From Bacteroidales bacterium (lineage in GTDB: Bacteria; Bacteroidota; Bacteroidia; Bacteroidales; UBA932): 64,000 bases of DNA. Position numbers and translations under genes: made by a program. Below, one piece after another: positions 10,396-63,273 of the stretch (positions are counted from its first letter, which is position 1; each line of letters starts with the position of its first letter). The stretch is from the NCBI GenBank assembly GCA_015060455.1, contig SUYM01000007.1, positions 31,234 to 95,233 of the forward strand. The letters run 5' to 3'. Below the pieces are notes generated by a model, which was given only the letters and a program-made list of their open reading frames with translations, did no database searches and had not been told where the DNA came from.

Positions 10396-10454
10396 CACAT
10401 CGAAGAGAATAGTCGTCGCAGGAAAGTAAGTAGTACAATATAAAAAGACGGATT

Positions 10455-47952: not shown

Positions 47953-47993
47953 ATATAGAATCAGTTAAATTTTATCCTTTTTGGAACTCTTCC

Positions 47994-48075
47994 ATCCGCA
48001 AAAACGCCTGATTTACGGACGCACACACATTTTTCATCAATCCCATCCGTAAAAACGCCATTTTCACGGACGGAA
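47994..48075. repeat. REP-like palindrome pair (copies 8 and 9), 51-bp phase
   Basis: 31-base units at 47994-48024 (TCCGCAAAAA ... ATTTACGGAC) and 48045-48075 (TCCGTAAAAA ... TTTCACGGACGG), start-to-start exactly 51. They fill the gap between pheS and the TerB-like gene, ending 12 bases from the stop of the latter. Confidence 0.85.
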
Positions 48076-48087
48076 CTGCAAAGGTAA

Positions 48088-49596
48088 TTAAATTTTGCAG
48101 GAAATCAGCATCTTCCAGAAAGATGAATCGCGAAGAGGAACCCTCACGCCATCACAATCGACAAAAAAGAGAGACTGCGATGCTGCAACACGATATAAAT
48201 TAAACTCCTTATCAAAAGTAATATGATATTGCTCCGGAGATGCCAGACCCTGAACCTGTGAAAATCCTGTATTGACATAGGTTTTCAACGAACTTCTATG
48301 GTTCAATATGCTTTGAATATATGAAAGATAAGAAGGTTTCTGCTCATCCTTGGTGGAAATCGCCCTATATATGCTTATCAGATTATATATCAGCAGACTC
48401 CATTCCGTATCAAGCGCACGGAGATGACTTTGGAAGGCATTGAGATTCAAATGTCCATCCGGTCCGCAGAACTCATCGGCAACAAGATTCTTAAGGTATT
48501 CCACAGCATCTGAAAAACATGACTGACTCACACCATGCTGCCCGTAATACAGCAACAGCAGATAAAGGGCACGCGATTGAGGGGAAGACTCAAAATTCAC
48601 CTTCGCATTGTCTGCGTTCTCCATCCTGAAATGAAGATTATTGTCTACCAGCACACTGCTGACTATCCCGGACTCGCTGCTGATATAGTCATAAAACATC
48701 TTGTAGTACCCTTCATAGGGCAAGACGAAGGCTTCTTCGGTGAAATGCGACACAAAACTCAAGATTCTCTTCTTGATATCCTGCGACATATCTATGCATA
48801 AAAAATCAACCACCTCCCTGCTGCAATCCTTATCATCAAAGACGGCACCATCTCTAACCTTGACGAGAATGAAGGAGTTGAACGGGAACATATCCGGACC
48901 AAGAGACAAGGCTGACAGGAACACCTTGAAGAACGTCGCCGTATCAAAATCACCGAGCGCCACCTCAACATTTTCTGCGGGCGCTCTCCTTCCATACGGC
49001 GCCAGATATCCGATCGATTTGCGCAACAGATCCCACTGCGCCCCGAAATCAGCCGCCGACCGAGTGTTCAACCCCAGACCTTCAAGCACCGAAGGCAGAT
49101 AGAAAAACTGGAGACCGATATCACCGAACGCCTTTGAAATCAACAGGTTGTCATACTTGTCATCAAAAACCATGTGAGCATTTTTCTCCCAGGATTTCTC
49201 AAGGAAAACCACCTGACAGTCAGACACCTTTGTCTCCGAAGCCGGCACCGATATGACCCGCGCCCACTCCCTGGTCTCCCGCCCGCAAGCCATTGATACA
49301 GCGGTCAGAAGAATATTCTCCCGGTCCGAGACATCACTGTCCGCCCTCATGATCCGATTGAACAGGTCAATTACATATTCCGCCTGTTCATCACTCATTT
49401 CATTGATTGAAGACACCGCCTCAGAAAGAGTTATATAATGAGCCATATCGCAATCTTCACGCGATATCGCCAATTCACTCTGAAGTTCATCCAAGATACG
49501 GATTTCCTTGCCATGAATCCTCCCGTCCGCCTTGATCAGATCCACCGCAACCTTGAATATTGTCCGTTTTTTCAGGGGTGTCAATGATGATAACAT
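48088..49596 (-). CDS. TerB-like domain protein of unknown function
   Basis: A 502-residue cytosolic protein. Residues about 5-100 match the TerB-like all-helical metal-binding domain (FKVAVDLIKADGRIHGKEIRILDELQSEL, ADSDVSDRENILLTAVSMACG) with the DGRIHGKE acidic pocket. The remaining 400 residues are helical without a domain I recognise. TerB-like proteins turn up in stress and defence operons with vWA and other proteins. It lies on the same strand as the tubulin-like operon, separated by 290 bases that hold a DUF1294 remnant, so it may be an island member or an older neighbour. Confidence 0.7.
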   Translation of the reverse strand: MLSSLTPLKKRTIFKVAVDLIKADGRIHGKEIRILDELQSELAISREDCDMAHYITLSEAVSSINEMSDEQAEYVIDLFNRIMRADSDVSDRENILLTAVSMACGRETREWARVISVPASETKVSDCQVVFLEKSWEKNAHMVFDDKYDNLLISKAFGDIGLQFFYLPSVLEGLGLNTRSAADFGAQWDLLRKSIGYLAPYGRRAPAENVEVALGDFDTATFFKVFLSALSLGPDMFPFNSFILVKVRDGAVFDDKDCSREVVDFLCIDMSQDIKKRILSFVSHFTEEAFVLPYEGYYKMFYDYISSESGIVSSVLVDNNLHFRMENADNAKVNFESSPQSRALYLLLLYYGQHGVSQSCFSDAVEYLKNLVADEFCGPDGHLNLNAFQSHLRALDTEWSLLIYNLISIYRAISTKDEQKPSYLSYIQSILNHRSSLKTYVNTGFSQVQGLASPEQYHITFDKEFNLYRVAASQSLFFVDCDGVRVPLRDSSFWKMLISCKI

Positions 49597-49733
49597 ATCC
49601 GATTTTTAAATTATAACTGCCATCTTTGAATTTCTGGTTTTCGGCCGATTATATTCCCCATAAATACAGTTTATTCCGCTGCGAATATACAAAATTTGCA
49701 GATTGTGGATAAATAAAACACCTTTTGTTTGCC

Positions 49734-49880
49734 TTAAAGAAACGTCAGAATGATAATTGTCTGAGCCACCATCATCAATGGAACCGGAATCGAAAATTTC
49801 AATTTCTGAGTCTTGTGATGAAACAGATACATTCCGGCAAATGCGCCGAAACTTCCCATCAGTGCCGATAATACCAGTTC
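49734..49880 (-). pseudogene. 5'-truncated DUF1294 membrane protein remnant
   Basis: The frame reads ELVLSALMGSFGAFAGMYLF, HHKTQKLKFSIPVPLMMVAQ, TIIILTFL, stop. This matches the second half of DUF1294 proteins, whose conserved GGxxGALxGMxxFRHKT lies there. The first 35-40 residues (N-terminal TM and the DK/RIPE segment) are missing: the codon before is TAG and the tubulin-system gene ends 7 bases further upstream. Best explained by insertion of the island into a DUF1294 gene. Confidence 0.75.
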
Positions 49881-49887
49881 CTATTAC

Positions 49888-50913
49888 TTAATCTCTATAA
49901 TATCCCCTTACCCCGTTAAGCATGGTGCTGATGTATTTGCTGAAAGCCGGATCCTTTGAATAGAACCCAATCTCGTCGGTGGCATATTTACTTGGGAAAG
50001 CGAGGACTGCCCGTCCTGAAACGAGCCAGCATGTCATCGTCAGATACTCGTCCAACGGAATAAGTTCGATTCCATGAGCAAGGTATTTCTCTATCAACAA
50101 CCTCGACATTCCTTTATACATATCTTCATAATCAGCAAAAGCAATCTGCCGTTTTGGCTTTCCAAGATAATATGTCTTCACCGAATCCATCTTGACGTAG
50201 ATTTGCTCCAGTTCCCGCCCTAAGTCATCATCATAAGATATCCGACCCTGCAACCGGCTCAGATATCGATCGACGTTTCGAGAGAACGATTCAAAATTCT
50301 TTTCTCGTGATTTATTGAAATATTTTTCACAGACTTCCGAGTCATCAAATTTACGCTTGCGACGCATCGAATCCAACTCTGCATCCATATCTCCCCAAAA
50401 ACAAGGATTTATTCTCTGCTCCCTTATCATCCGATGAAATGTTCTCCCCTCTATGTCATAATATGCAATTGTCACCTTGCCACCATTGTCAGCATGAGAC
50501 AGGAGCATATGATTCATGCGAATGAAGTTCTCGGGCCGGCTCAATATTCCATAATAAAGCACGTCTTCAAAAATAACTACGCTATCCCTCGGGGTCATCT
50601 CATCCAACAATGCATTTACCTCTAGCAGGTAATCTGGAAATATACCAAGATAGCGGGTTGAAACCGAGTTCTGGACATCAAGAAGGTTGTTGGAGATGTC
50701 TTCCAGATTATTGATCATACTCTCTGTCCTATATGCGTCCTCCCGCTGCTCTACCACAAAAATGATTATGGTTATCAGCAGAGAAACAGCAGCCGAACTG
50801 ACAATAAACTGAAAAATCTTATATAAAACAGAGTGCCGCACCCAAGAAACAAGGCGCGCCCATTTCGTCGAGTGAGATTTTGCTTCTTCTTTGTTACTCA
50901 TCGTGTTCATCAT
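49888..50913 (-). CDS. One-TM protein of unknown function, tubulin-like system
   Basis: 341 residues from ATG 50913, chosen for the GGAG box 7 bases upstream; ATG 50901 is a second possibility. It overlaps the 3' end of the tubulin-like gene B by about 20 bases, so translation is coupled. A cytosolic N-terminus of about 30 residues precedes one TM helix (FQFIVSSAAVSLLITIIIFVVEQ, about 36-58), leaving a 285-residue soluble domain (RDSVVIFEDVLYYGIL, GGKVTIAYYDIEGRTFHRMI, GIELIPLDEYLTMTCWLVSGRAVLAFPS). The alternation is reminiscent of a Rossmann-like or PLD-like fold, but no HKD motif is seen. Last gene of the operon; the DUF1294 remnant begins at the next few bases. Confidence 0.78.
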   Translation of the reverse strand: MMNTMSNKEEAKSHSTKWARLVSWVRHSVLYKIFQFIVSSAAVSLLITIIIFVVEQREDAYRTESMINNLEDISNNLLDVQNSVSTRYLGIFPDYLLEVNALLDEMTPRDSVVIFEDVLYYGILSRPENFIRMNHMLLSHADNGGKVTIAYYDIEGRTFHRMIREQRINPCFWGDMDAELDSMRRKRKFDDSEVCEKYFNKSREKNFESFSRNVDRYLSRLQGRISYDDDLGRELEQIYVKMDSVKTYYLGKPKRQIAFADYEDMYKGMSRLLIEKYLAHGIELIPLDEYLTMTCWLVSGRAVLAFPSKYATDEIGFYSKDPAFSKYISTMLNGVRGYYRD

Positions 50914-53263
50914 TTTTACACTCCGGCTTAAGCGCAAAACCGGACTTCCGAATATCCTCAAAAATCTGACGGTCAAAATGTGGGTTCTGCAACGGCATTT
51001 CCTTCAGGCTACTGATACAATACTCATATTCCTCCTGTACAGACTTATCCAATGCGTCAACACAATAAGGTATGACAGCAAAGTCTGAACGGAAGAAAAT
51101 CATTCGTTGCTTCAAATAAGGCACTTCTGATGGTCTGAAAAGGAGGCTGAATCCACCTGAGAAAAAGCTATGATCCATCTCCATTCGAGATTTCTTATAT
51201 AGATCTTCTTTATAAATGACTGCGCAGTATTCCCTGACTATCTTGTCTGACGGGCTCCTGTTAGTAAGAGGATCAAGCAGTCCTCTGTAATTCAACTTAA
51301 GGAGAGGGCTTACCTTTCTTGCAACCTCTTTCTTAAGTGCCTCATAATCTGAATCTGAAAGATTCTGGATGACATCCTCAATAAGTCTTGTCCTATATTC
51401 TTCACAACGAGGAAGATTCAAGGTGTATGCGTCAAGAGCGGCATCGAGTTCCTCTTTTGTCATCTCTACAATCGGCTTCGACAGTGTTGCTGTGAACTCT
51501 GTTAAAACAACCTCACCCTCTTCTAATATAAGATCAAGACGTTCTGATGATGAAAGATCGTACTCAAAGCAACGAGACAATTCCTCACTTTGGCTTTTGA
51601 TTAGGCTAATTTTATATACATCCCTGAGAGAAAACATGGAATCCAACATGCCTTTTACCTGAGAGTCCAGTCCTTTTATATGAAACACAGTATAATCGAG
51701 AACATAAATAGCCAACAGTCGTCTCCGACATTCTATCTTTGCTTTTAAAAGTTCACCAGCCACTTGCTCAATGTCATAAAGAAAACCTCTTATAGTCGAT
51801 TCGCTCTTGAACCGCTTCGAAAGATAATTGCCATAATCTGCCAAAATCCCATTCAACGTCGTTTTAGTTCTTTCTACAACATGAGAAAACATACTATATT
51901 CGTTCTCCATCCTTACGCGACTCTGATCTAAAAGATATAACAAATTCCAGATATAGGATTCAACTGAGATAATACCACCAACTTCTCTAAGAGTGGTTAT
52001 TATCCTATCCTTAATTTGCGTGTATAGATGGTGTCCTATGGATTCCTTCTTTTCAGATTCATTCAGAAATGGATGTGACAAAACATATTTCCACACCTTC
52101 GAACGAGTCGCCTCAAACGTATCTTCCGCACAAAGCCGAAGCCTATCTGTCTCAAAAAGGCGTTTGCAAGAAAAGATGGCTTCGAGTAAATCCTCACAAC
52201 TAGCATCCTTCAGCCTTTTTAATTCTTCCTTCCAGAATTCATCAGTCGCATCAGTGCTATCACAATACTGACGAAGCAGTTCTAACCTCGCTTTGAGAGC
52301 ATAAATCTCTGCCAACTGTTCACCCTTATATACAACGTGACACACTCCAAACCGTTGTGCCCAGCCTAATTTGTCCGTGAAGTTAAACCTTCCACCTTTC
52401 CAGCCTCCGCATGAATCCAGTGATGTATAATCTAAATAACCCAGAAGAAACATACCCGCACCCAATGCCTGACAGAGGACATTGATATTATCAACCGTCT
52501 CACAATTTTCAGTCTTATTGTCTATAAGGTAAAAGTTGTCATAAAGAGGAGACGTGATAGTCTTTGTCTGCCCTGCCACATTAAACGAAATCGGTTTGTT
52601 TGGGGAGGCTGTCTGAAGATAATCAAGATCAAGAATTGACGAATATGTGTTCAAACGAACCCTTGGGGTGCTATAGCCCGATGGATTCATTCTCCGAAAA
52701 ACTCCATATAACACCCCAAAGCCATTAATAATTACCTGATTCCCATACATCTCCCTTACAAGTTGCGCTACATTAATAAATGCACCTGCGCCCATACCTC
52801 CGGCAAGGGACATTGCAATGTAAACATCAACGTATTCGGAAATGAGCGAATTTATTGAAAGAACCGACTCTATTGCCTCACGTATCTTGTATCTCAAAAG
52901 TTCAATATTCAACTCTGTAACCAGACGTCCGTTTGTTCGCAACTGCCCAGTTCCGCATTTAAATGAATGAAGGATCTTACCACTATTTTCAGGAAACATC
53001 CAATCAAACACCCCTTGCGTACGACCTTTTTCAAAAGCCAAATACGCATTTTCCGTCTGCAAAGGCACGATTTCATCAGCCGAGAATATTTCCCCAAAGC
53101 GAGGATGTAATTCACACCAATCGCTATCAATTGCAAGGAAAGCAATCACTGGCGGAATATTTCCATCACCAAACGTCTCCTCAAACATTTTCTTGGTGTG
53201 GGCTATTGCCTTTATACCAGTACCTCCAATACCTATATAAAGAGATCTCCGAACATATGTCAT
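50894..53263 (-). CDS. Tubulin/FtsZ-like GTPase B (Tubulin_2-type), 789 residues
   Basis: Contains an N-terminal tubulin-fold GTPase: nucleotide-binding GIGGTG (11-16), a second acidic loop FLAIDSD (42-48), CGTGQLRTNGR (103-113) and the tubulin-signature loop SLAGGMGAGAF (152-162). It then has a long helical C-terminal extension (residues 330-789). Homologues of this group (PF13809-like) are rare, uncharacterised and usually next to vWA, membrane or protease genes. The paralogue GTPase A is in the same operon. The two differ in length and in the signature loop (GGMGAGA versus GGTGSSS), so they may form a heteropolymer, or one may regulate the other. No signal or TM segment. Confidence 0.82.
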   Translation of the reverse strand: MTYVRRSLYIGIGGTGIKAIAHTKKMFEETFGDGNIPPVIAFLAIDSDWCELHPRFGEIFSADEIVPLQTENAYLAFEKGRTQGVFDWMFPENSGKILHSFKCGTGQLRTNGRLVTELNIELLRYKIREAIESVLSINSLISEYVDVYIAMSLAGGMGAGAFINVAQLVREMYGNQVIINGFGVLYGVFRRMNPSGYSTPRVRLNTYSSILDLDYLQTASPNKPISFNVAGQTKTITSPLYDNFYLIDNKTENCETVDNINVLCQALGAGMFLLGYLDYTSLDSCGGWKGGRFNFTDKLGWAQRFGVCHVVYKGEQLAEIYALKARLELLRQYCDSTDATDEFWKEELKRLKDASCEDLLEAIFSCKRLFETDRLRLCAEDTFEATRSKVWKYVLSHPFLNESEKKESIGHHLYTQIKDRIITTLREVGGIISVESYIWNLLYLLDQSRVRMENEYSMFSHVVERTKTTLNGILADYGNYLSKRFKSESTIRGFLYDIEQVAGELLKAKIECRRRLLAIYVLDYTVFHIKGLDSQVKGMLDSMFSLRDVYKISLIKSQSEELSRCFEYDLSSSERLDLILEEGEVVLTEFTATLSKPIVEMTKEELDAALDAYTLNLPRCEEYRTRLIEDVIQNLSDSDYEALKKEVARKVSPLLKLNYRGLLDPLTNRSPSDKIVREYCAVIYKEDLYKKSRMEMDHSFFSGGFSLLFRPSEVPYLKQRMIFFRSDFAVIPYCVDALDKSVQEEYEYCISSLKEMPLQNPHFDRQIFEDIRKSGFALKPECKNDEHDE

Positions 53264-53339
53264 ACGCGGTTATATATTAAACGACCATTGTTTGTTCACT
53301 TCGGGGTATGCTTGCTCCTCGTATTATTCAAAAATCTGT

Positions 53340-54218
53340 TCAGCGCGAACCATTTTCCAGCAACAGATAAGGATCTCGTTCAATAATCCCCGATGCTTCC
53401 AACCGCCCAAGCAGACTGTCATTATCATCATCTGAATCAGTCCTTTGATAAAGCATCAGATAAGACAATTTTCTCAAAATATCCCGCTGCGCGTCATCCG
53501 CAACATTATATGCCTCCTGCATGATCTGCATCAGCGGGGTCTGAGCGGCAAGAATTTTCTCTGCCCGTTCTTTTGAGATTGTGCTCACAATGATATGAAC
53601 CGAATACGTCAGCAGGCGACCGGCAAGACGAGGCGATGTCAATCCTTCAGCCTTTTCAGGCAACAGACTATAGCCATCCGGCACTTGTATGTCCGCCTCC
53701 CTCCCCTCGACCCGAGCTTTATCCAGCATCACCTTTTCAAGTTCCTCATAAGTGGCATATCCCATTATGGCGCACATCAGAGAACAGAAATTCTCGTTGT
53801 CCATCAAATCAATAGTGTGAATCATCAGATCTCTGACATCCGAAGTCGAGGGCACCTTATCGAATTTACTATCCGTGAAAGCAAAGATAGAGTATTCTCC
53901 ATCATTTTCCTGGACAGTGATTTCTGACCGATATTGATTGTTCTTGTTCAAACGCTTCAACTCGTACGAAACCAAGCCTGCCACATGCTCGGGCACAGGT
54001 ATCGGAAACGGAGAATAAACAAATAGCCTATCCGGCTCCTTTGCATCACACTTCAAAACAGTATTGAAGCTGCAATGAACGCCATCAATAACAGTCGTAA
54101 ACACCCCCTCTTCCGGACATTGCGAAGCAATACCTGCCTCGTCAAACATCAGCTGAACGATCGCTGCTACGTCGACACACCGGTCTGGTTGCCGCCTAAA
54201 GAAATTGAAGATACTCAT
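53340..54218 (-). CDS. Soluble protein of unknown function, tubulin-like system
   Basis: 292 residues from ATG 54218 (MSIFNFFRRQPDR); an ATG three codons earlier is equivalent. The N-terminal 130 residues (VAAIVQLMFDEAGI, RLFVYSPFPIPVPEHVAGLVSYELKRLN, GEYSIFAFTDSKF) resemble in layout the YbjN/type III chaperone-like fold, an inference only. The C-terminal part is helical (MDNENFCSLMCAIMGYATYEELEKVM). It lies between the calpain-like and tubulin B genes with gaps under 85 bases, suggesting a chaperone or adaptor for one of them. Confidence 0.72.
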   Translation of the reverse strand: MSIFNFFRRQPDRCVDVAAIVQLMFDEAGIASQCPEEGVFTTVIDGVHCSFNTVLKCDAKEPDRLFVYSPFPIPVPEHVAGLVSYELKRLNKNNQYRSEITVQENDGEYSIFAFTDSKFDKVPSTSDVRDLMIHTIDLMDNENFCSLMCAIMGYATYEELEKVMLDKARVEGREADIQVPDGYSLLPEKAEGLTSPRLAGRLLTYSVHIIVSTISKERAEKILAAQTPLMQIMQEAYNVADDAQRDILRKLSYLMLYQRTDSDDDNDSLLGRLEASGIIERDPYLLLENGSR

Positions 54219-54300
54219 ATCCTGCAAATTTATCTATTTAATATCGTCTGCTATTTGCAAATAATTCGGTCAGATGTCTATATCTGCTAGCCCCAAATTC

Positions 54301-57300
54301 TTAATCGTAGAAATTGCTCAATTTTAACGGAGGTGATACTCTGAAGATTGTAATAGACTGTTTCTTGTCATCGCGAGGACTCAATATATTGATATTGTTT
54401 TCGCCCCTATCCTTCAGATATTTATGCACCTTTTCATTAGCTGTCTCATCCACGCTGATCGGTTCCATAAAGATAAGATTCTGCTCTGTCTTATCTACAC
54501 CTCTATGATCCTTAATGCGAGCTTTGTTAAAGAGATATACAGAATACTGATAAAATTTACCGAGCATTTCAGTGTTTAATAAGTCATTCAACTGATTGAA
54601 GGTTGAGTCAAGATTGCACAAACCGGCATCCATCAGTTCCTCTATCTTGCTGGCCAGCTCTATCTCAGACGCGTTTCCTGTCAAATCACGCTCAAATGAT
54701 GAGAAATCACCTTCATTTATATCAAAGAATACAATGACGTCGAAATTATCCTTGATAAAATCAATGTCCACCTTCTCGTAATGCTTTCCTCTGACATTCT
54801 CATCTGCCATATAATTATTCCAAGGGTTGAAAATGTCAAAAGTACCGTCCTCATGCACAGTTCTCAATGCATACGCATGGTTCTCCACCAAATGCGGATC
54901 CTTATTGGTAAACGAAGTGTCGCTTGGGCTTGCAGAATATAATGTTATCGGCAGTTTGTCTTGCAAAACATGCTTCTGCATCATTTCAAGCAGTTTCTGT
55001 CTATCCGGAACATTCTTGGTCATGCAATAGAAAGCAGTCTTCCCGGTCACAGCATAACTATATTCAACCATTCTCACTCTCTCCTCACCATCGGCACTTG
55101 CCCCTTCAATTGCATCATATCCTCCCTTATTTACCTTAGCCCATGCCTTCTCAACAGCCATAACCCATGGGTCATATGCGTCACTAGGCTCTTCCTTCAT
55201 CTTACCGACTCCGGCATAAATCGGAGTTCCGCCCTGGTTCCAGAATTTATTGTCTATATCTACATTGATTCTGTTTCCATCTTTATCATAGAACTTAACT
55301 CTGAAAAAACGATTAGTCTCACCAAGAGGTTCTATCATTCCATGCTTGCCAACAATGTACTCAGGGTTCGTATGAGCAATCGTCGCCAGTGTTGCCATAA
55401 AATAACAGTCTCCCACATTTCCCTGCTTTACATCATCCATCTCAATGCCGTCAGTCTCTGGAAGTTTTGACATCCGATTAAGCTCAGAATATTCATAACC
55501 CTTGCCCTCATGTTCCTCCTTACATTGGATAATCTCTCTCTCAATCGCATCAAGATCAAAAACATCCGTCGGTTTATAATCCGGAGCAAATCTAGATGTT
55601 TCAAACTGGACTTTTTTTCTCTTGCAGTCCTCAAACGCCTCCGAAAGAGATGAGCCGACAGATGCGTTCAGGCAAAACGCAACTCTCCTCTTTTCGCCTT
55701 CCGGACCAAATAAAAGCGTAGCAACATCAATGTCACTTAATTCAATCGTATTCGAATCTGTAGCATATCTCTCTACGACATTCATTCCAGACAGTTTGTA
55801 ATTCACAAGAAGGCGAAACAGTGTCTTGCGGAATCCTGCCAGATCATCTTTCTTTCTGCGCACAAAATCCACGAGTTCATTTAAAGTCTTCAAGCCATGA
55901 TAAGCAAGGATATGACGATAGCGCTTCTCGATCGACATCATCATTTTGTCCATACAATCCCGCATCAAACGTTTCTTTCTATCCTTAAATCCTCGGAGTT
56001 GTTCTTCCAACTCTTTTCGCTGCCTTGCTATACTCCATATTACAACTACCCCTATCAGCACCCCTACAAAAAACAGCAGGGAAAATATTATCCAAGCATA
56101 TTTATCAAAAGGGGGACGGCACTCCTTTTCAAAAAGCGGTCTCAACCACTTAAGGTAAATTGTTGCCCAAAGTGAAGAAGATACTATTCCTGCAAGAATA
56201 GATATCAGCGACCGACTTTTTGCTGTGAGTTTTACTTCAGCATCCTTATCATACCAATTTTCAAATTGGAAATTCAACAATCTGATAGCATCATTACATC
56301 TGCTTATATTTCTATCAACTGCATCAAAATCCGCTTTAATCTTAGATGGTTTGCCATCCGCTCCCGGAGAATAGTAGTCCCGTATCTCTTTTTCGCTCTC
56401 TTCCAGTTCCTGAAGGCGCTTAGACTCTTCAAGGCGGATCTTTTCTCGAATCCCGCAAAGGTTGAAATCTCCCACCGAAACTTTACTATCTGTCAGATTT
56501 TCCCCGTCGCCAGATTCCAGATATGTCAAGAATGCCAGACTAGTGTCAATGTTAGAGTGATGTGCCTGAACATCCTGTGGAGTGAGGACCTCTGAAATCG
56601 TAGTATACTGACCTTCAGGTCTGTTAAAGAAGTCAAGAAGGTACTTATCTATCTTATCCTTGAAAGAGTCAATCTGCTTCTTTCTACTTCTTGAAACCTC
56701 ATTGTTAACCTCATCAAAGACTGTCCTCTTGTGGATAACGACACGTTCCTGAATGTCTGTGATAAACTCTTCTGAGATAGTAGACTGATGTTCCTGTCCA
56801 ATTGAAACTCTCTTCCAATATTTATCTACTACATTTTCAGTGTTCTTCATCTGCCATTGCTGCTTGTGCGAAAGATCGTCAATGAACACCAAACCGTTAT
56901 CCGACGCGTTGATGAGATAGTCCTTGTCGTTATCGGAACTTTTCAGGAGTAAGCCCTGAGTCTTTTCAGTAATGACCGATGCCTCTATCGGGATCCGGTT
57001 GTCGCGAATGAACACTGGAGATGTTGAATCGATTCGCCTCTCCATTTCATCCTTATCATCCATATATGGTACAACGTTCTCTGCCAGATAGTCATCAAGA
57101 CTCTTGTCCGAATAGTTCAGAAGATGCTGAATATTCTTGAAATAGTAATAGTTTCTTACTGCCTTATCTCTCTCTTCATCATTAAAGAAAACAGACGAGT
57201 CGCCAAAGAGATTATAAATAGGATTTCCTTCGCCATCCAATTGTCTCAAAGAGAATTCTCTTCTATGATTGACAACCAGAAATATCATGCGTGCTATCGC

Positions 57301-57756
57301 ATGAGCGCGCCTTTGTTTGCTGACTGGCATTCCTCCACCGTAATCATACTTGTCGAGTAACCAATTATAAACACATACAGCATTGTTCCTAAGGCACGGC
57401 ATCATTTTCTCATAGTCAGAGAGGGTGAGACCGTGAGGGTCCTCTAAATTCAGAAGCACGTGAATCTCGTCTTTATCTTGACTGAATTCAAATTTACTTT
57501 TCTGGACCTCATTCAGACAATTAGATATCCGAGAAATGCTGTTTTCCTTATTTGAGGCAATGATGAAATATATACGCCTGTTGATTTCTTCGCCAACGTA
57601 ATTATGTTCAAGCACCCCACCGCGAAAATCGATGACATTCTTAAGTTCGAAATCACCTGAATCAAAATGGCGATAATGCATTCCGTATATGTAAGGAATC
57701 CTCAAATCATCTTCTGCGACAATCTCATCTATATCTAATACGAATCCTATATTCAT
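54301..57756 (-). CDS. Calpain-like (C2) cysteine protease with two TM helices, 1151 residues
   Basis: A large protein with a catalytic calpain-like papain-fold domain at about 755-1010: QGNVGDCYFMATLATIAH with Cys784, ENHAYALRT with His960 and FNPWNNY with Asn977, the canonical C2 triad. Before it lie a helical N-terminal region (about 1-510, acidic), two TM helices (about 517-537 and 551-575) and a linker. With two helices both flanks should face the cytosol, where the tubulin-like GTPases are. Calpain-like domains are uncommon in bacteria. Gaps to its neighbours are 82 and 99 bases, the second carrying a small hairpin (GCAGGG/CCCTGC, 57801-57817). Confidence 0.85.
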   Translation of the reverse strand: MNIGFVLDIDEIVAEDDLRIPYIYGMHYRHFDSGDFELKNVIDFRGGVLEHNYVGEEINRRIYFIIASNKENSISRISNCLNEVQKSKFEFSQDKDEIHVLLNLEDPHGLTLSDYEKMMPCLRNNAVCVYNWLLDKYDYGGGMPVSKQRRAHAIARMIFLVVNHRREFSLRQLDGEGNPIYNLFGDSSVFFNDEERDKAVRNYYYFKNIQHLLNYSDKSLDDYLAENVVPYMDDKDEMERRIDSTSPVFIRDNRIPIEASVITEKTQGLLLKSSDNDKDYLINASDNGLVFIDDLSHKQQWQMKNTENVVDKYWKRVSIGQEHQSTISEEFITDIQERVVIHKRTVFDEVNNEVSRSRKKQIDSFKDKIDKYLLDFFNRPEGQYTTISEVLTPQDVQAHHSNIDTSLAFLTYLESGDGENLTDSKVSVGDFNLCGIREKIRLEESKRLQELEESEKEIRDYYSPGADGKPSKIKADFDAVDRNISRCNDAIRLLNFQFENWYDKDAEVKLTAKSRSLISILAGIVSSSLWATIYLKWLRPLFEKECRPPFDKYAWIIFSLLFFVGVLIGVVVIWSIARQRKELEEQLRGFKDRKKRLMRDCMDKMMMSIEKRYRHILAYHGLKTLNELVDFVRRKKDDLAGFRKTLFRLLVNYKLSGMNVVERYATDSNTIELSDIDVATLLFGPEGEKRRVAFCLNASVGSSLSEAFEDCKRKKVQFETSRFAPDYKPTDVFDLDAIEREIIQCKEEHEGKGYEYSELNRMSKLPETDGIEMDDVKQGNVGDCYFMATLATIAHTNPEYIVGKHGMIEPLGETNRFFRVKFYDKDGNRINVDIDNKFWNQGGTPIYAGVGKMKEEPSDAYDPWVMAVEKAWAKVNKGGYDAIEGASADGEERVRMVEYSYAVTGKTAFYCMTKNVPDRQKLLEMMQKHVLQDKLPITLYSASPSDTSFTNKDPHLVENHAYALRTVHEDGTFDIFNPWNNYMADENVRGKHYEKVDIDFIKDNFDVIVFFDINEGDFSSFERDLTGNASEIELASKIEELMDAGLCNLDSTFNQLNDLLNTEMLGKFYQYSVYLFNKARIKDHRGVDKTEQNLIFMEPISVDETANEKVHKYLKDRGENNINILSPRDDKKQSITIFRVSPPLKLSNFYD

Positions 57757-57855
57757 AATCTATTTTATTCTAGTCTGTAAAATTATTGAATAGCAAGACA
57801 GCAGGGCATCACCCTGCCGTCCAGCCATTAACACCAATTATAAATCGGGTGATTA

Positions 57856-60800
57856 CTAATCATTCAATAAGTTTGCTTGATATTTTTTCTCCTCCTCTGC
57901 GAGAATACCTAATGAATCTGTATATTCAATCTGACCAAACTTATTGAGTCTAACTTCTACGGATGCTGAATTAAGACGTGCAAATCGCTTTGCTAGTGCA
58001 TTTGCCTCGTTCTGTATAACCAGGCGCTCTCCTTCATTCATACTTGTCTTCAATTTTCCGCGTCCCTCCCACAACAGACCATCATTCACCCAGTGAAAAA
58101 TTTTAATGATTGCTTTCTGTCTATCTGAATCAATCAAATCCATAACCTGATTATAGATATCTGTAAAGAGTTCTTCATCCTTTACAAACTGCCTGCGGCA
58201 TACAGATAGATCAGAGGACTTCTTCGTGCGAACAGCAAAATAGTCAAGGTATCCGGAGTTTCCTAAAACTTGCTGAGTCTTCGAAAGATATGCCTGTGAA
58301 GCCTTCACCTGAATTCTTCCATTTACGCTCGCAAGCAGACCAAACAGCCATCCATATGCCCACGCAATATCACCTAATTCGTTTGCCGTCTCAGGGAACA
58401 GGAGATCAATATCCTCAAGGCGTTTGTCGCTAAAGGAATAAGTAACTCCCTTCTTATCTTTGTATTCACCCTTCCAAACAGACGCATCGCTCATCTTGAA
58501 TGCCGGAATTGCTGTTTCCTGAAGAACAAATATGATACGATCCGGATCACCAACGTTGATATATTGATAATTCTGACCAGATGGTAAATATGCGTGATAT
58601 CCATTTCTACCGTCTAACAGGTGGTTATTTATATCAAACACTCCAACTACGCATTGCTGTGCAACCGCCTGACAGTGATCGCCCCTGAAATCATCATATT
58701 GCCACAACGAATCAAAAAGAGCTTCCATCTGACCAAACAAACCAAGATGAGGATACCGTTTCTGGTCGCGATAGTCATCAACCTTAGATGCTTCGCCAAA
58801 ACAATGTACGAACAGTTGATCAAGAGAAAGAGCCTCAGATTTGATTCTCTTTACAAGAGTGTTATCAGGAAGTTTATCAAGAATAAACTTCCGCATCTGT
58901 GCAATCAGTTCTTTGTTTATCTGAGGTTTGGTTGTGAAAATTTCCTTGATATAATCATCCAATGCAACCTTATCCTGCTCTGTCAGTTCAAACGCCTCAT
59001 TCTTATGAGTATCAAAGAACTCTTTAAAGTATCCGTCAACAAAGATAACTTCATTCTTCGGAGCCTTTGAATATTTGTAATCATCAAACTCCGACTGAAC
59101 AGAAGACTTTAAGGAGTCAAACATTGCCTGCACATCGCTCGCTGACCCTGTGATCTGGACAGCATACCTATCACCACCCAGTTCAATCTTCTCCTCTTTA
59201 TAGAAGGCGTCCACTACTTTGATGAGAGAGTCATATATATCAATCGCCTCTTTCTTTCTGGCAATCTCGAGCTTGATACGCATCAGGGTCGGATTAGCAT
59301 CGCTTCCGATATTATCAACCTCCTTCATATATGCCCTGATTGCATCACTCTGAGCAGCCTCTTTACTACCGATACCAAATAAAATTCCTTTGCTAGTGTT
59401 GTTGTTTATATTGGCTTTATGCTTCCTAAGTTTATCCTCTATCTTCAGTTCAGCAACCTCATGCTTCTTAAGTTCATCCTCAAGACCCTCCTTCATGGCT
59501 TCAAATGCACTCTTGAGACGCTTGGCGAGGTCAGGCAAACAGCCAAAACCCTTTTCTGTCTGCCGGCGAGAGAGGAGGTCTCCAAGATTCTTGCGAAGTT
59601 GTGCCTTATGGGAAGCAAACTCCTTAACAGCCTCATTTGCTTCAGCAGAAATCTTGTTTACAAATTTCACCTTGTTTGTTTCAATCTGACCAGCAGCATC
59701 TTTTCCTGTCTGGACCTTACCCATGACTATCGTGGCAAAACGCTTATCATCCAGTTTATAGATTGAATCTGTAAGTTCGTTCAACTGAGCACGGGTGTCC
59801 TCCTTTCCATCTTCGGTGCCATTGACGCCCTCATTCAGCTGGTTCTGAGAAATGAAATCATCTGCAATCCTATCAGCATCAAGATCCCCGGACTTATACT
59901 CGCTCAAGACCTCACGAAGGTGCTTGTTAAGCAGATATTTTACGAGGTTCTGACGATCAAAGCGAATCTCGCAATATCCAAGACCGCTATACAACTGCTT
60001 CTTTCCATCAACATCGTGCAGACGATGGGTAGAATTAGAGTAGCAAGAACTCAACGCCTGACTATCCGCAGCGATCGATGCCGCGATGAAAGACGCAACG
60101 TAACCGGTCGCTTCCGCAAAATCATGAGAGTGCCCCTGCTTTGTCTTATCATCAACAAGATAAACATTAGAATAGCGTACGGACTTGTTGTCCTTGTACT
60201 GATCATATGTAACCAGATCATTCTCCTTTTCAAGACAACCGGCAGGATACCTTTTCTCGTCGTTAAGACCTAACAAGTAGTCCAACTCCGAGAGTGCTAC
60301 ATATGAATTGATCTTTACATTTGGAGTATTCGGCTTTGTCGCAAAGAAAGACGGCATAAAGAACATACCAAGTATAGTGTCGCTAGGTGAAGCGGCTCCA
60401 CGCGGAAGCACATCAATACCCGCATGCTGAAGCATACGCGAGAAATCAAGGAACGAACTGCTGCCCGTACCTCCCGCAAGTGAGGCTATAACATATACTG
60501 TTATACCATTGCTGGAAAGCTGATATCCTCTGGCACACTCGTCCGCAGCCAAATTTGCGTTTCTCAGGCTATGGATTGTATTTGTAAGCATGGTCATAAT
60601 GCTGCCGGCATTATAAAGAACATGCGCACGTCCCATCACTCGATAACCATTTGCTCCTATAGCATTAGCCATTCCATAGATTTTTCCCAACTGCTCAAAA
60701 TTAAGATTTCTACAGTTTTCATCTGACTTCAGAACCTCGATTGACGGACGTGTTATCTTCTTGAATTCTGCGTTCGTCAGATTGTACATCTTTGTCGCTC

Positions 60801-60993
60801 TGTTTTCACCAGCATAATAATACTCAAATGGGGTCTCTTGATAATCATAATCATCTGTATCAAACGACAAGAACTTTACCAACGATGGGATTTCTCCATA
60901 CCTCCTGAAGAGACGTTTCTTTACATCCCTGATTACGCTCTGACCAGTACCGCCAAGACCAACAATCAAGGTTCTTGAAATTGATTTACTCAT
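57856..60993 (-). CDS. Tubulin/FtsZ-like GTPase A (Tubulin_2-type), 1045 residues
   Basis: The largest of the two GTPases. Tubulin-fold landmarks: GLGGTGQ (12-18), FLSFDTDD (41-48), IGANGYRVMGR (112-122) and SLAGGTGSSSF (171-181), the nearest match to the tubulin signature GGGTGSG. The remaining 850 residues are largely helical, with an apparent coiled coil (ADEELKKHEVAELKIEDKLR-like) near 470-560. No TM or signal. Such long C-terminal extensions are not known in FtsZ and could form polymer-associated arms. It follows the membrane-adaptor gene by 46 bases and precedes the calpain-like gene by 99. Confidence 0.85.
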   Translation of the reverse strand: MSKSISRTLIVGLGGTGQSVIRDVKKRLFRRYGEIPSLVKFLSFDTDDYDYQETPFEYYYAGENRATKMYNLTNAEFKKITRPSIEVLKSDENCRNLNFEQLGKIYGMANAIGANGYRVMGRAHVLYNAGSIMTMLTNTIHSLRNANLAADECARGYQLSSNGITVYVIASLAGGTGSSSFLDFSRMLQHAGIDVLPRGAASPSDTILGMFFMPSFFATKPNTPNVKINSYVALSELDYLLGLNDEKRYPAGCLEKENDLVTYDQYKDNKSVRYSNVYLVDDKTKQGHSHDFAEATGYVASFIAASIAADSQALSSCYSNSTHRLHDVDGKKQLYSGLGYCEIRFDRQNLVKYLLNKHLREVLSEYKSGDLDADRIADDFISQNQLNEGVNGTEDGKEDTRAQLNELTDSIYKLDDKRFATIVMGKVQTGKDAAGQIETNKVKFVNKISAEANEAVKEFASHKAQLRKNLGDLLSRRQTEKGFGCLPDLAKRLKSAFEAMKEGLEDELKKHEVAELKIEDKLRKHKANINNNTSKGILFGIGSKEAAQSDAIRAYMKEVDNIGSDANPTLMRIKLEIARKKEAIDIYDSLIKVVDAFYKEEKIELGGDRYAVQITGSASDVQAMFDSLKSSVQSEFDDYKYSKAPKNEVIFVDGYFKEFFDTHKNEAFELTEQDKVALDDYIKEIFTTKPQINKELIAQMRKFILDKLPDNTLVKRIKSEALSLDQLFVHCFGEASKVDDYRDQKRYPHLGLFGQMEALFDSLWQYDDFRGDHCQAVAQQCVVGVFDINNHLLDGRNGYHAYLPSGQNYQYINVGDPDRIIFVLQETAIPAFKMSDASVWKGEYKDKKGVTYSFSDKRLEDIDLLFPETANELGDIAWAYGWLFGLLASVNGRIQVKASQAYLSKTQQVLGNSGYLDYFAVRTKKSSDLSVCRRQFVKDEELFTDIYNQVMDLIDSDRQKAIIKIFHWVNDGLLWEGRGKLKTSMNEGERLVIQNEANALAKRFARLNSASVEVRLNKFGQIEYTDSLGILAEEEKKYQANLLND

Positions 60994-61039
60994 AATGTTT
61001 ATTATTTTAGTTTATTAATTGATTCAATTCGTTCAGATA

Positions 61040-61852
61040 TTAATAGTATCGGAGAAGAACCTCATTGCCCTGGGCATCCCTCAGGCCTTTGAATTCTTCG
61101 TCAAGAAGAAGAACGGTACCTCTGCTGACAAATTCTCCGTCCCGCTCGAGAGTACAATCAACCATCTGCTTGATGCAAGGACCCTGAAAACGACCAAATC
61201 TCTTCTTCACTAAGATAACGTCGCTTTCTCCCTCCAATTCGATACCGGCCTTCTCAAGTTCCTCTCTGACAGAAACCCTGCTCTTGCCCTTAAGATAAAC
61301 TTCTTCCCGACCAAGTTGAAGCACACCCTTCGGAAACTTCGCAGTCTGAATCAGGACTATAGCCAAAACCAATGCTACAAGAGCGAGTACAGCCGCAACT
61401 ATAAGCGCGACCTGCCACCATGGTGTTGGCGGGGGAAGTATATAATTTACCTTCAGATCCAAATTCATCTTGTTCTTTGGGAATCCAAGATTATCCGAAA
61501 CCTCTATTACTTTCATAGATAAATTATAGGTCGTAGCCTCTGTCTTTTTGCGTCCCTTAATTGTCAAGGCCAAACCATCCTCACCATTAGCAAACTCCTT
61601 ATAGTCCGTTGCTTTTACTGTCAGGACATCTCCCTTCAACTTTCCTTGTGAGAATGCATAATCAAACTCATTCCAATCACCGGAAAGTTTCCACGAAACA
61701 AAAGCGCCGTCCTCTTTCGCCTCTTTCGAGAATGACAGTTTCAAATTCATCTTCAAAGATTCACCCTGATTGATGTTTTTAGTAACAGCCGACACACTCA
61801 TTCCGAGAGATGCCGCAAGTAAAAAGATTCCTATAACGATTATTCTTTTCAT
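61040..61852 (-). CDS. Type I membrane protein bridging periplasm and cytosol
   Basis: 270 residues: signal peptide (1-22, cleaved near SVSA), a 120-residue beta-rich exported domain (GDVLTVKATDYKEFANGEDG), one TM helix (146-170, WWQVALIVAAVLALVALVLAIVLIQ) with a PPPTPWW entry, and a 95-residue cytosolic domain (KSRVSVREELEKAGIELEGESDVILVKK). Given the secreted vWA protein upstream and the cytosolic GTPases downstream it looks like the membrane adaptor. I do not recognise a family. Confidence 0.8.
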   Translation of the reverse strand: MKRIIVIGIFLLAASLGMSVSAVTKNINQGESLKMNLKLSFSKEAKEDGAFVSWKLSGDWNEFDYAFSQGKLKGDVLTVKATDYKEFANGEDGLALTIKGRKKTEATTYNLSMKVIEVSDNLGFPKNKMNLDLKVNYILPPPTPWWQVALIVAAVLALVALVLAIVLIQTAKFPKGVLQLGREEVYLKGKSRVSVREELEKAGIELEGESDVILVKKRFGRFQGPCIKQMVDCTLERDGEFVSRGTVLLLDEEFKGLRDAQGNEVLLRYY

Positions 61853-61873
61853 ATTAATGTCATTCTATTAATT

Positions 61874-62854
61874 TCAATTCCAACCATCACCGTCAACAAT
61901 CACTATCCCACAAGGTCTGTTTCTTACACTGACACAGAAAGTGGACGGTTCTATTTTCAGTTCATTTTCACCATCAGAAGATCCCACCAACCTAACTATA
62001 ATATCACACTCAGCGGCAGAGTTGTTATGAAAATCAAGAGTGAATTTACACTTGTATGCATCACCTGTCTTCTCAAGGTTATTAAACGACACCTTTGCCG
62101 GTTTAATGGTAACGTTTGTTTCCTTTTTTGAAACAGACTCAATCCTTGCCTCAAAGAAAAACGGTGACACATCCTTTCCGTTTGCGTCAAACAATTGTTC
62201 AACTTCTATTGTTTCACCCAATGTATAGTTAATATTCCTGAAAGCCGGTGTAACAGAGAAAAATTCACAAAAACCTTTTCCATAAGAGGTTCCTGGTCCA
62301 TCAAAAATTTCAGGATCAGCCGAACCGTTAAGATCGACATAATAAAGATGGTCATAATCACCACGCTGAGCACAATAGTCCTTTACAACAGCATCCATAC
62401 TGCTGTTCATCTCCTCTTCCTTTCCATCTGTTATCAAATATATCTTCTTAACGTCGTTTCTATAATTCTGACAGAGATAATTCCAGGCCTTTTGAAGATT
62501 TGACGCTATCCAAGTATGTCTGCCATCTATGACAACATTCTTGATTGCATCCTTAACCTTCACCCTGTCGGCGTCAGAACAAATATCTATAGTCTGTGGT
62601 TCACTTAAATCTTTGGCATACGTAAAGAATACAACCTTACAGGGCGCCTTTATTCCATCCACCCATGAATAGCAGTAATTTTGTACATCAGCCCAAATGT
62701 CCTGACCGCCACCTCTGCCAATCATGGACAGAGTGTTATCCAAAAGAATACAATGAACATACTGACTCTGTTCGTCAGAATTCTGCCCAAATGATGGCGG
62801 AGCGACACTTAAACCCAGAACAATGGCAAGCGAAATTAAAAAGACTTTATTCAT
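61874..62854 (-). CDS. Secreted vWA-domain protein
   Basis: 326 residues: signal peptide (1-24, cleaved near SFGQ) and a von Willebrand A domain (about 32-200). The metal-ion-dependent site reads DNTLS (Asp39, Thr41, Ser43; a DxTxS variant), Thr114 in GRHTW and Asp143 in LITDGKEE, so metal binding seems intact. A C-terminal beta-sandwich follows (TIKPAKVSFNNL, CDIIVRLVG). The gene sits 21 bases before the adaptor gene. vWA domains mediate adhesion or complex assembly; here it is the likely outward-facing sensor. Confidence 0.88.
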   Translation of the reverse strand: MNKVFLISLAIVLGLSVAPPSFGQNSDEQSQYVHCILLDNTLSMIGRGGGQDIWADVQNYCYSWVDGIKAPCKVVFFTYAKDLSEPQTIDICSDADRVKVKDAIKNVVIDGRHTWIASNLQKAWNYLCQNYRNDVKKIYLITDGKEEEMNSSMDAVVKDYCAQRGDYDHLYYVDLNGSADPEIFDGPGTSYGKGFCEFFSVTPAFRNINYTLGETIEVEQLFDANGKDVSPFFFEARIESVSKKETNVTIKPAKVSFNNLEKTGDAYKCKFTLDFHNNSAAECDIIVRLVGSSDGENELKIEPSTFCVSVRNRPCGIVIVDGDGWN

Positions 62855-62898
62855 AACAACACATTTAAAAGACTATTTAAAATAAGAGAAAATAAACT

Positions 62899-63273
62899 CT
62901 ACTCCGACACCTCTGTTGAATCACTTGACGACACGAAGCCCTCAATCAGACCTTCTACATAATCGCCCGCATCCTTAAAGAATCGCTCTACACCTTTGGC
63001 TGCATTTTTTATGGAAACCTTTGTAAGAACAGCATCAAATGCCCCCATTCTCTTCTTGAAGAACGCTTTCTCCTCTTCGTTGAGTTTGCCATACTGGCTG
63101 ATATACTCTTTTTCGAACTCGGCATACTTCTGCTCGATTGCCTTCCAATCCACATCAGAATAAGTTTCATAATTGGTTTCTACTTCGGTAACAAAAGAAT
63201 CGAATCTTTCTGTCAAGGTCTTACATGAGGCAAGCGACAACATAAGAACAGCAAACAGGAACAATTTCTTCAT
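62899..63273 (-). CDS. Small lipoprotein, first gene of the tubulin-like operon
   Basis: 124 residues from ATG 63273, with lipobox LASC (MKKLFLFAVLMLSLASCKTL). The mature part is helical and charged (DWKAIEQKYAEFEKEYISQYGKLNEEEKAFFKKRMGAFDAVLTK), like the DUF6565 lipoproteins of Bacteroidota. It precedes the vWA gene by 44 bases. Its function is unknown, but an envelope-anchored helical protein next to vWA would fit a receptor complex. Confidence 0.78.
   Translation of the reverse strand: MKKLFLFAVLMLSLASCKTLTERFDSFVTEVETNYETYSDVDWKAIEQKYAEFEKEYISQYGKLNEEEKAFFKKRMGAFDAVLTKVSIKNAAKGVERFFKDAGDYVEGLIEGFVSSSDSTEVSE

What the first reader, a model, noticed from the sequence alone, without database searches (positions are those of the whole stretch)
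49888..63273. Tubulin-like GTPase pair with calpain-like protease, vWA protein and membrane adaptor in one operon
Seen: eight same-strand genes with gaps below about 100 bases: lipoprotein, secreted vWA protein, type I membrane protein, tubulin-like A, two-TM calpain-like protease, soluble unknown, tubulin-like B, one-TM unknown. Known: FtsZ/tubulin-like proteins of the PF13809-type group are rare and uncharacterised, and comparative genomics has linked FtsZ-like families with vWA and membrane proteins. Calpain-type proteases are rare in bacteria. Inference: an envelope-anchored sensor (lipoprotein, vWA) signals through the single-pass adaptor to GTPase filaments that control a membrane-bound protease, perhaps as an anti-phage or cell-death system. 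I do not know of a described system with this gene set.
Basis: partly seen in the sequence, partly recalled or inferred. Interest (0 to 1): 0.95.

Follow-up and report, generated by a model that had tools for sequence, protein, structure and literature searches.

The report
Tubulin-bodied membrane protease switch
A bacterial operon puts a tubulin-family protein next to a calpain-family enzyme that is predicted to sit in the membrane and to be built on a tubulin body of its own; related bacteria carry a papain-family enzyme in the same place, so the set likely works as a switch that would turn a signal from outside the cell membrane into protein cutting.

Summary
The gene set is real: eight - strand genes at 49888-63273 with gaps of 99 bases or less. 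It is a composite. Its core is four genes: vWA protein, single-pass adaptor, tubulin TubA and two-TM calpain Calp. They recur in that order in 5 of the 6 other genome loci that hold both a Calp relative and a tubulin (three Bacteroidota lineages); the sixth is cut by a contig end. U295, TubB and TM338 are not part of that core.

A parallel quartet exists: in nine genomes of the same family a TubB-like tubulin is followed by a two-TM protein with a papain (C1) instead of a calpain (C2) domain. The vWA proteins and adaptors of the two versions are homologous.

Mechanism (inferred): periplasmic signal, adaptor, tubulin assembly, proteolysis. An anti-phage role is possible but weakly supported. 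The vWA/tubulin kind was described in 2010 and 2020; I find no record of the protease slot.

The parts
62899..63273 (-). Lipoprotein (124 aa, DUF6565)
   Evidence: PF20203 31.2 bits over cut-off; LASC lipobox by eye; relatives in two papain-type loci, L082 (two copies) and L083
61874..62854 (-). vWA protein (326 aa), predicted secreted; core gene 1
   Evidence: Weak VWA match below cut-off, D-x-T-x-S loop conserved, N-terminal hydrophobic segment 1-23, homologous to vWA proteins of papain-type loci: hhalign E 5.1e-18
61040..61852 (-). Adaptor TM270: predicted signal peptide, extracytoplasmic domain, one TM (142-178), about 90-residue tail predicted cytoplasmic; core gene 2
   Evidence: Hydropathy; homologues in L027, L029, L030, L031 by phmmer and L032 by position and alignment; homologous to papain-side adaptors, score 47.0 against 20.7 reversed and 25.3 best of 40 shuffles
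57856..60993 (-). TubA, tubulin-family protein (1045 aa); core gene 3
   Evidence: PF13809 154.9 bits; GLGGTG at 12-17 and GGTGS at 174-178 nearly invariant in 61 sequences; AF2 model pLDDT 87.2
58393..60981 (-). TubA residues 5-867: predicted complete tubulin fold interrupted by a coiled coil
54301..57756 (-). Calp, two-TM calpain-family protease (1151 aa); core gene 4
   Evidence: PF00648 61.3 bits; 57 relatives besides itself, 55 of them aligned over 98% or more of its length; AF2 model pLDDT 85.8
56857..57756 (-). Calp residues 1-300, predicted N-terminal part of a tubulin-like body (no GTP-site motif)
   Evidence: VIA-align rows 24-50 all tubulin/FtsZ entries, model range starting at 1-2; GG[TS]G absent from the first 320 residues in 58 of 58. 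The cut at 300 is mine, from the secondary structure
56017..56208 (-). Calp predicted transmembrane hairpin, residues 517-580
   Evidence: Hydropathy; two segments called in 52 of 58 family members
54721..55473 (-). Calp calpain domain, residues 762-1012; Q778, C784, H960, N977 invariant in 58 of 58
54304..54669 (-). Calp residues 1030-1151, predicted C-terminal part of the tubulin-like body
   Evidence: VIA-align ranges end at 1143-1151 in rows 24-50; the cut at 1030 is mine, from where the calpain rows end
53340..54218 (-). U295, soluble protein of a common family without a Pfam domain; probably not a core part
   Evidence: 116 homologues; no phmmer match among the ORFs of the neighbourhoods fetched by then; GC 0.466 against 0.41-0.43 for the other operon genes
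50894..53263 (-). TubB, short tubulin (789 aa) of the papain-type clade
   Evidence: PF13809 145 bits; sister to the papain-type tubulin of L074, support 100/100
49888..50913 (-). TM338, one-TM protein (start codon uncertain, 50901-50913)
   Evidence: One homologue among the fetched loci, directly downstream of a papain-type protease in L086, E 9.7e-46

Best explanation
The core is a conserved four-gene unit (vWA protein, adaptor, tubulin-family protein, cysteine protease) that likely works as a membrane switch: a signal outside the inner membrane would be passed by the predicted single-pass adaptor to the tubulin, whose GTP-driven assembly with the predicted tubulin-like body of the protease would switch on protein cutting at the membrane. 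Shown: the gene set and order, intact tubulin GTP-site motifs, intact protease active-site residues, and a papain domain in place of calpain in the same slot while the other three components stay homologous. Predicted: periplasmic vWA and adaptor head, cytoplasmic TubA, protease held by a transmembrane hairpin, complete tubulin fold of TubA, tubulin-like body of Calp without a GTP site. Inferred: that TubA and Calp assemble together, that assembly activates the protease, and that the result is a stress or cell-death response rather than housekeeping. TubB and TM338 look like parts of the papain version recruited next to the calpain version; whether TubB works with TubA is open.
Confidence: 0.5

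Rival explanations
1. Membrane-remodelling machine: the tubulin forms filaments under the inner membrane that shape or traffic envelope material, and the protease only processes components or limits filament life.
For: This is the reading of Makarova and Koonin 2010 for vWA/FtsZl1 operons (PMC2875224, section 6 read). The vWA, adaptor, Calp and TM338 proteins carry signal or transmembrane segments. Other Tubulin_2 operons have a slot-four protein without a recognisable Pfam protease (5 of 5 scanned), so proteolysis is not needed for every version.
Against: Two different protease families with intact active-site residues occupy the same slot, which suggests that proteolysis is the selected output in these lineages. 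An FtsZ-family gene (PF00091, 139 bits) is present elsewhere in the genome, so TubA is not the only division candidate.
Confidence: 0.25
2. Anti-phage or altruistic death system: the switch fires on infection and the protease kills or arrests the cell.
For: Patchy: a full-length calpain protein only in the window's own genome among 398 sampled of the family and 393 of the order; operon GC 0.41-0.43 (U295 0.47) against 0.48-0.49 around it; the site beside pheS is occupied differently in 5 of 5 relatives read; a TIR gene in L082, a caspase pair in L031 and a caspase in L089 lie nearby. Tubulin/vWA operons of Firmicutes and Actinobacteria were classed as conflict systems (PMC7159879, passages).
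Against: In 11 genomes only 1 of 9 caspase and 1 of 14 TIR matches lie within 10 kb of the tubulin; the window's genome has neither. No PADLOC match above chance. No relative in viral contigs, and several flanking genes look like ordinary chromosomal ones by eye.
Confidence: 0.35
3. The resemblance of Calp to tubulin is a modelling coincidence: its ends are an unrelated alpha/beta domain, and the tubulin only neighbours it.
Against: All 27 non-calpain rows shown are tubulin/FtsZ and use both ends of Calp. The papain partner gives weak hints against TubA (N part above 40 of 40 shuffles, C part above 39 of 40, in the expected order), although its N part is no better than shuffles against the TubB-type tubulins that it actually accompanies (19 of 40 as good).
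Confidence: 0.3
4. The window holds two systems side by side: the calpain quartet, and a separate remnant (TubB, TM338) of a papain-type system whose protease was lost.
For: TubB is sister to a papain-type tubulin; TM338's only homologue among the fetched loci follows a papain-type protease; the single papain match of the incomplete genome is a partial one on another contig.
Against: Gaps stay short through TM338. Two or three TubA-like tubulins with one contig length recur (8 lengths), 5 of them a long with a short form, and TubB is short too, so a second short tubulin may be a working part.
Confidence: 0.4

Closest known systems
vWA/FtsZl1 operons (Makarova and Koonin 2010, PMC2875224; part 1 of 5 of the text, passages and section 6 read)
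   Same: Tubulin_2/FtsZl1 protein plus vWA protein plus membrane proteins; distinct from FtsZ
   Different: The word calpain does not occur in the main text; the frequent partners named there (protein kinase, P-loop GTPase, OmpA) had no Pfam match in the window operon. They could not confidently identify T6-H7 or a known C-terminal tubulin domain in FtsZl1; the TubA model has a full tubulin fold
GAP1-N2 GTPase-centric conflict systems with tubulin (Kaur et al. 2020, PMC7159879; passages read)
   Same: Tubulin with a C-terminal coiled-coil or helical region, in firmicutes two tubulin genes, vWA proteins with extracellular vWA
   Different: Tubulin theme described there for firmicutes and actinobacteria; centred on a TRAFAC GTPase with GAP1, not found here; calpain 0 occurrences, papain 1, in another system
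Bacterial calpains, family C2 (Rawlings 2015, PMC4631099; passages read)
   Same: C2 protease with the Cys/His/Asn set; rare in bacteria; three bacterial ones predicted to be membrane-associated, one of them from Bacteroides sp. D2
   Different: Tubulin, FtsZ and operon each have 0 occurrences in that text; here the domain sits in a 1151-residue protein inside a tubulin operon
Alpha/beta-tubulin and BtubA/B heterodimers (recalled)
   Same: Two tubulin-fold subunits building one filament
   Different: Here the predicted second subunit lacks the GTP motifs altogether and carries a membrane hairpin and a protease

Membership tests
Tubulin_2/FtsZl1 (PF13809) | Match over curated cut-off | tested here: met
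   TubA 154.9 and TubB 145 bits against 27
Tubulin_2/FtsZl1 (PF13809) | GTP-binding T1 and T4 loops | tested here: met
   TubA GLGGTG and GGTGS nearly invariant in 61 sequences; TubB GIGGTG and GGMGA. GTP binding itself not tested
Tubulin/FtsZ superfamily: Calp body | Tubulin fold | tested here: inconclusive
Tubulin/FtsZ superfamily: Calp body | GTP-site glycine motif | tested here: not met
   GG[TS]G in the first 320 residues in 0 of 58; so at most a GTP-site-less relative, not a tubulin GTPase
Calpain C2 (PF00648) | Match over cut-off and Cys/His/Asn triad | tested here: met
   61.3 against 23.8 bits; C784, H960, N977 in 58 of 58
Calpain C2 (PF00648) | Calcium dependence | not tested
   Calcium-site residues were not examined; Rawlings reports that bacterial homologues lack calcium-binding sites (abstract start in the listing)
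vWA/FtsZl1 membrane system (Makarova and Koonin) | FtsZl1 gene plus vWA gene in one operon | tested here: met
   vWA below Pfam cut-off but with conserved D-x-T-x-S
vWA/FtsZl1 membrane system (Makarova and Koonin) | Frequent (not obligate) kinase, P-loop GTPase or OmpA partners | tested here: not met
   No such Pfam match among the nine proteins from 48088 to 63273
GAP1-N2 GTPase-centric conflict system (Kaur et al.) | TRAFAC GTPase and GAP1 component | tested here: not met
   No GTPase or GAP1 model matches the operon proteins in Pfam, PADLOC or NCBIfam; genes beyond the contig end could not be seen
Known anti-phage system | Match to PADLOC models | tested here: not met
   9 proteins; one 14-bit match of TM338 to a Csm5 model (E 0.008), which I take as chance

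The most novel reading that the evidence does not exclude
A class of membrane-anchored cysteine proteases built inside a degenerate tubulin: calpain in one lineage and papain in another were placed into the slot-four tubulin-like subunit, on opposite sides of the transmembrane hairpin, so that co-assembly with a GTPase tubulin gates proteolysis in answer to a periplasmic vWA sensor. It would be the first tubulin-controlled protease.
Probability: 0.45. Interest if true: 0.93.

Novelty: new variant of a known kind. Interest (0 to 1): 0.8.

Why it matters
FtsZl1/Tubulin_2 proteins were named in 2010, and the literature searches listed here turned up no functional study of one. This operon gives them a concrete, assayable output (cleavage by a protease with a known active site), a clean prediction (protease activity depends on GTP and TubA), and a natural control (calpain and papain versions of one machine). 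The TubA model also bears on a point left open in 2010, whether these proteins keep the C-terminal tubulin domain. If Calp is a tubulin-bodied protease, it shows a tubulin fold used as an activation scaffold for an enzyme.

Tried and rejected
(1) First genome scan with TubA alone found nothing; the second, with the calpain alignment, gave 37 loci. (2) Viral origin: no relative in viral contigs. (3) Homology of the two coiled-coil/TM regions: hhalign E 7e-5, rejected because the reversed control scores higher. (4) Sequence proof of a tubulin body in Calp: failed (Calp N against TubA 12 of 40 shuffles as good, C against TubA 22, N against TubB-type 3, N and C against the papain partner 27 and 25). 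Profile searches of the PDB with the TubA, papain and Calp alignments listed no tubulin (for papain only the best 60 of 181 were shown). (5) One ancestry for all slot-four proteins: the five without a recognisable protease do not align convincingly with Calp or the papain proteins. Three of them (L103, L105, L106) have a hydrophobic stretch in the second half and two (L089, L119) have none. (6) TerB-like gene as part of the system: 7 of 61 genus genomes match, the window's own included; two others near full length, and those two neighbourhoods hold no ORF matching the window's tubulins. (7) Defence enrichment by neighbours: weak. (8) U295: a common family, no function found. (9) Dropped or thin: L028 and L090 left out of the tree (partial tubulins); the G177 match (L021, 28.7 bits) and the matches below cut-off were not followed; only 9 of 37 loci were compared with all window genes, all 37 only for a tubulin. 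The HMM contains five of the six tubulins it finds, so its positives are partly by construction; its 31 negatives are the informative part, limited by locus length (3.5-21 kb) and by an ORF overlap filter. That filter hid a vWA gene in L088, recovered by tblastn. One search used 94 of 104 TubA-search rows (the ten weakest left out).

Absence-in-print claims rest on searches of open-licence PMC papers only; no preprints or subscription journals.
Full report
What is there. The eight genes lie on the - strand at 49888-63273 with gaps of 44, 21, 46, 99, about 80, 76 and -11 bases. In transcription order: lipoprotein (DUF6565), vWA protein, adaptor TM270, TubA, Calp, U295, TubB, TM338. TubA and TubB are the only Tubulin_2 matches in the 2.5 Mb assembly, rated 83% complete; one FtsZ-family gene (PF00091) lies on another contig. 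A TerB-like gene follows 291 bases further on. The contig ends 727 bases upstream of the lipoprotein gene.

The conserved core has four genes. A search of 5.8 billion proteins with Calp gives 58 sequences including itself; the other 57 are 40-74% identical, 55 of them aligned over 98% or more of Calp, the exceptions over 86% and 47%. In an alignment of the 58, Q778, C784, H960 and N977 are invariant. Of 37 genome loci with a calpain relative, the six best (L027-L032) have a Tubulin_2 gene alongside and the other 31 have none in the DNA held. In five of the six the order is vWA, adaptor, tubulin, calpain on one strand (the adaptor of L032 by position and alignment, not by phmmer); the sixth, L028, begins inside the tubulin. 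The records are titled Bacteroidaceae, Bacteroidales, Prevotella, Prevotellaceae, Crocinitomix and Roseivirga; the last two belong to other Bacteroidota families. Independently, 27 of 58 calpain clusters (the window's own included) share an exact longest-contig length with one of 94 TubA clusters, where jittered lengths give 0.13. U295, TubB and TM338 have no counterpart in these loci as far as the DNA held reaches; in L031 it ends 0.6 kb after the calpain gene.

A papain version fills the same slot. In 299 genomes of the same family, 20 have a Tubulin_2 match over cut-off. Reading the neighbourhoods (L088 corrected): nine have a papain-family (C1) protein of 1156-1253 residues right after the tubulin, seven have a different operon with a zinc-ribbon membrane protein (by eye), one is the window, two are other kinds (G041, G216), and one was not followed (G177). 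All nine papain partners exceed the PF00112 cut-off, and the active-site residues are kept in 9 of 9. Two or more hydrophobic segments are called in the membrane region of 8 of 9 and one in L087. Six of the nine loci show the full quartet, one (L074) shows the end of the vWA gene at the contig edge, and two (L084, L090) are cut by contig ends. The vWA proteins of the two versions match over 269 columns (hhalign E 5.1e-18). The adaptors match with score 47.0 against 20.7 for the reversed profile and 25.3 for the best of 40 shuffles. In the tree TubA groups with the calpain-side tubulins of L027, L029 and L030 (100/100); TubB is sister to the papain-side tubulin of L074 (100/100) inside a group of 11 rows (100/99) that holds the eight papain-side tubulins in the tree plus those of L089 and L119. 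The calpain-side tubulins from Crocinitomix and Roseivirga are a separate, well-supported pair whose place is unresolved, so a single origin of the calpain version is not shown.

The window is therefore a composite: a calpain quartet followed by a tubulin and a one-TM protein of the papain kind. TubB is short (789 residues). Among metagenomic relatives of TubA, residues 876-1045 are filled in under 30% of 15 short forms examined, and 8 contig lengths carry two or three TubA-like clusters, in 5 of them a long and a short form. A second, short tubulin may thus be a recurrent part. I could not read those contigs.

Protein architecture. The vWA protein has an N-terminal hydrophobic segment and a D-x-T-x-S loop. 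The adaptor has one transmembrane segment with a domain on either side; several homologues begin as lipoproteins (lipoboxes by eye). Calp has two segments at 517-580; two are called in 52 of 58 family members. The papain domain lies before the hairpin, the calpain domain after it. An even number of segments puts both ends on one side, presumably the cytoplasm with TubA (inference).

Limits of that reading. Foldseek gives tubulins only E 0.06-0.11, behind helical pore-forming toxins at 0.002 and up. Profile comparisons of the Calp ends with TubA, TubB-type tubulins and the papain partner are not clearly better than shuffled controls (3 to 27 of 40 shuffles as good). The papain partner gives a weak hint against TubA: N part 35.6 against a shuffle maximum of 31.5, C part 29.7 with 1 of 40 shuffles as good; but its N part does not match the TubB-type tubulins it accompanies (19 of 40 shuffles as good). 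The apparent similarity of the two hairpin regions fails its reversed control (44.6 against 40.2). The claim is likely but open.

How it most likely works. A periplasmic vWA protein and lipoprotein would sense an envelope event; the adaptor would carry it across; TubA would assemble with GTP together with membrane-held Calp; and crowding or conformational change would start cleavage of substrates near the membrane. Every step of this chain is inferred; what is shown is the parts, their order and their active-site residues. The output could be a stress or death response. For it: a full-length Calp occurs only in the window's own genome among 398 sampled of the family and 393 of the order (the other matches there cover at most about 105 residues of the protease domain); GC is 0.41-0.43 (U295 0.47) against 0.48-0.49 around; and in 5 of 5 relatives read, of 18 with a pheS match, other genes lie beside pheS. 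Caspases (L031, L089) and a TIR protein (L082) lie near some systems. Against it: the linkage is thin (1 of 9 and 1 of 14 matches within 10 kb in 11 genomes), and no PADLOC model matches above chance.

Known and new. The vWA/FtsZl1 kind was described in 2010 and tubulin/vWA conflict operons in 2020. In the texts searched, calpain and papain are not tied to bacterial tubulin; a 2026 hypothesis paper (PMC13413365, passages) links eukaryotic calpains to microtubules, with no occurrence of FtsZ. I rate this a new variant of a known kind, with a possible categorically new element: a protease inside a tubulin body.

Noticed in passing
48088-49596 (-): TerB-like 502-aa gene beside pheS; near full-length genus relatives (about 40%) in L137 and L138 lie next to a roughly 900-aa gene that looks like a P-type cation ATPase (by eye).
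   Followed up: partly
46927-49596 and L139-L143: In five relatives the 5' side of pheS has a small exported protein (5 of 5, one with a further gene between) and a dipeptidase-like gene (seen in 4 of 5; both by eye); the window has the TerB-like gene and the tubulin operon there instead, an occupied versus empty site.
   Followed up: partly
L075-L081, L114-L116, L120: A second kind of Tubulin_2 operon in the order: tubulin with a zinc-ribbon membrane protein and, where the contig is long enough, a series of secreted proteins; no vWA/protease partners noticed.
   Followed up: partly
P0074/P0145, P0120/P0129/P0147, P0070/P0095/P0138 and others: Contig lengths shared by two or three TubA-like tubulins; in 5 of 8 a long form with a short form lacking the C-terminal 170 residues, in 3 long forms only.
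   Followed up: partly
L031 903-2892: Two tandem caspase-fold genes just upstream of a calpain quartet; the first reads FSGYGF where the second has FSGHGF, so it looks like an inactive/active pair.
   Followed up: partly
L082 542-6689: TIR protein and two DUF6565-like lipoproteins upstream of a papain quartet.
   Followed up: partly
L028 8196-9527: Protein fusing a phosphoribosyltransferase and a histidine phosphatase domain behind an N-terminal hydrophobic stretch, downstream of a calpain gene.
   Followed up: no
L030 3634-4653: Patatin-like phospholipase lipoprotein 119 bases upstream of a calpain quartet, same strand.
   Followed up: no
L089 7517-14202 and L119 2313-9394: vWA-tubulin operons whose slot-four protein (698 and 770 aa) has neither a recognisable protease nor a membrane segment, although their tubulins are close to the papain-side clade.
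   Followed up: partly
L103 568-4404 (-): A 1278-aa gene of another Tubulin_2 operon has a sub-threshold match to a putative metallopeptidase family (DUF6782, E 0.0076).
   Followed up: no
53340-54218 (-): U295 belongs to a family of 116 clusters found with almost no Pfam annotation; one cluster is 97% identical to it.
   Followed up: partly
9529-11318 (+): Tandem near-duplicate genes sharing nearly the same N-terminal 29 residues (ORF6N-like by eye).
   Followed up: no
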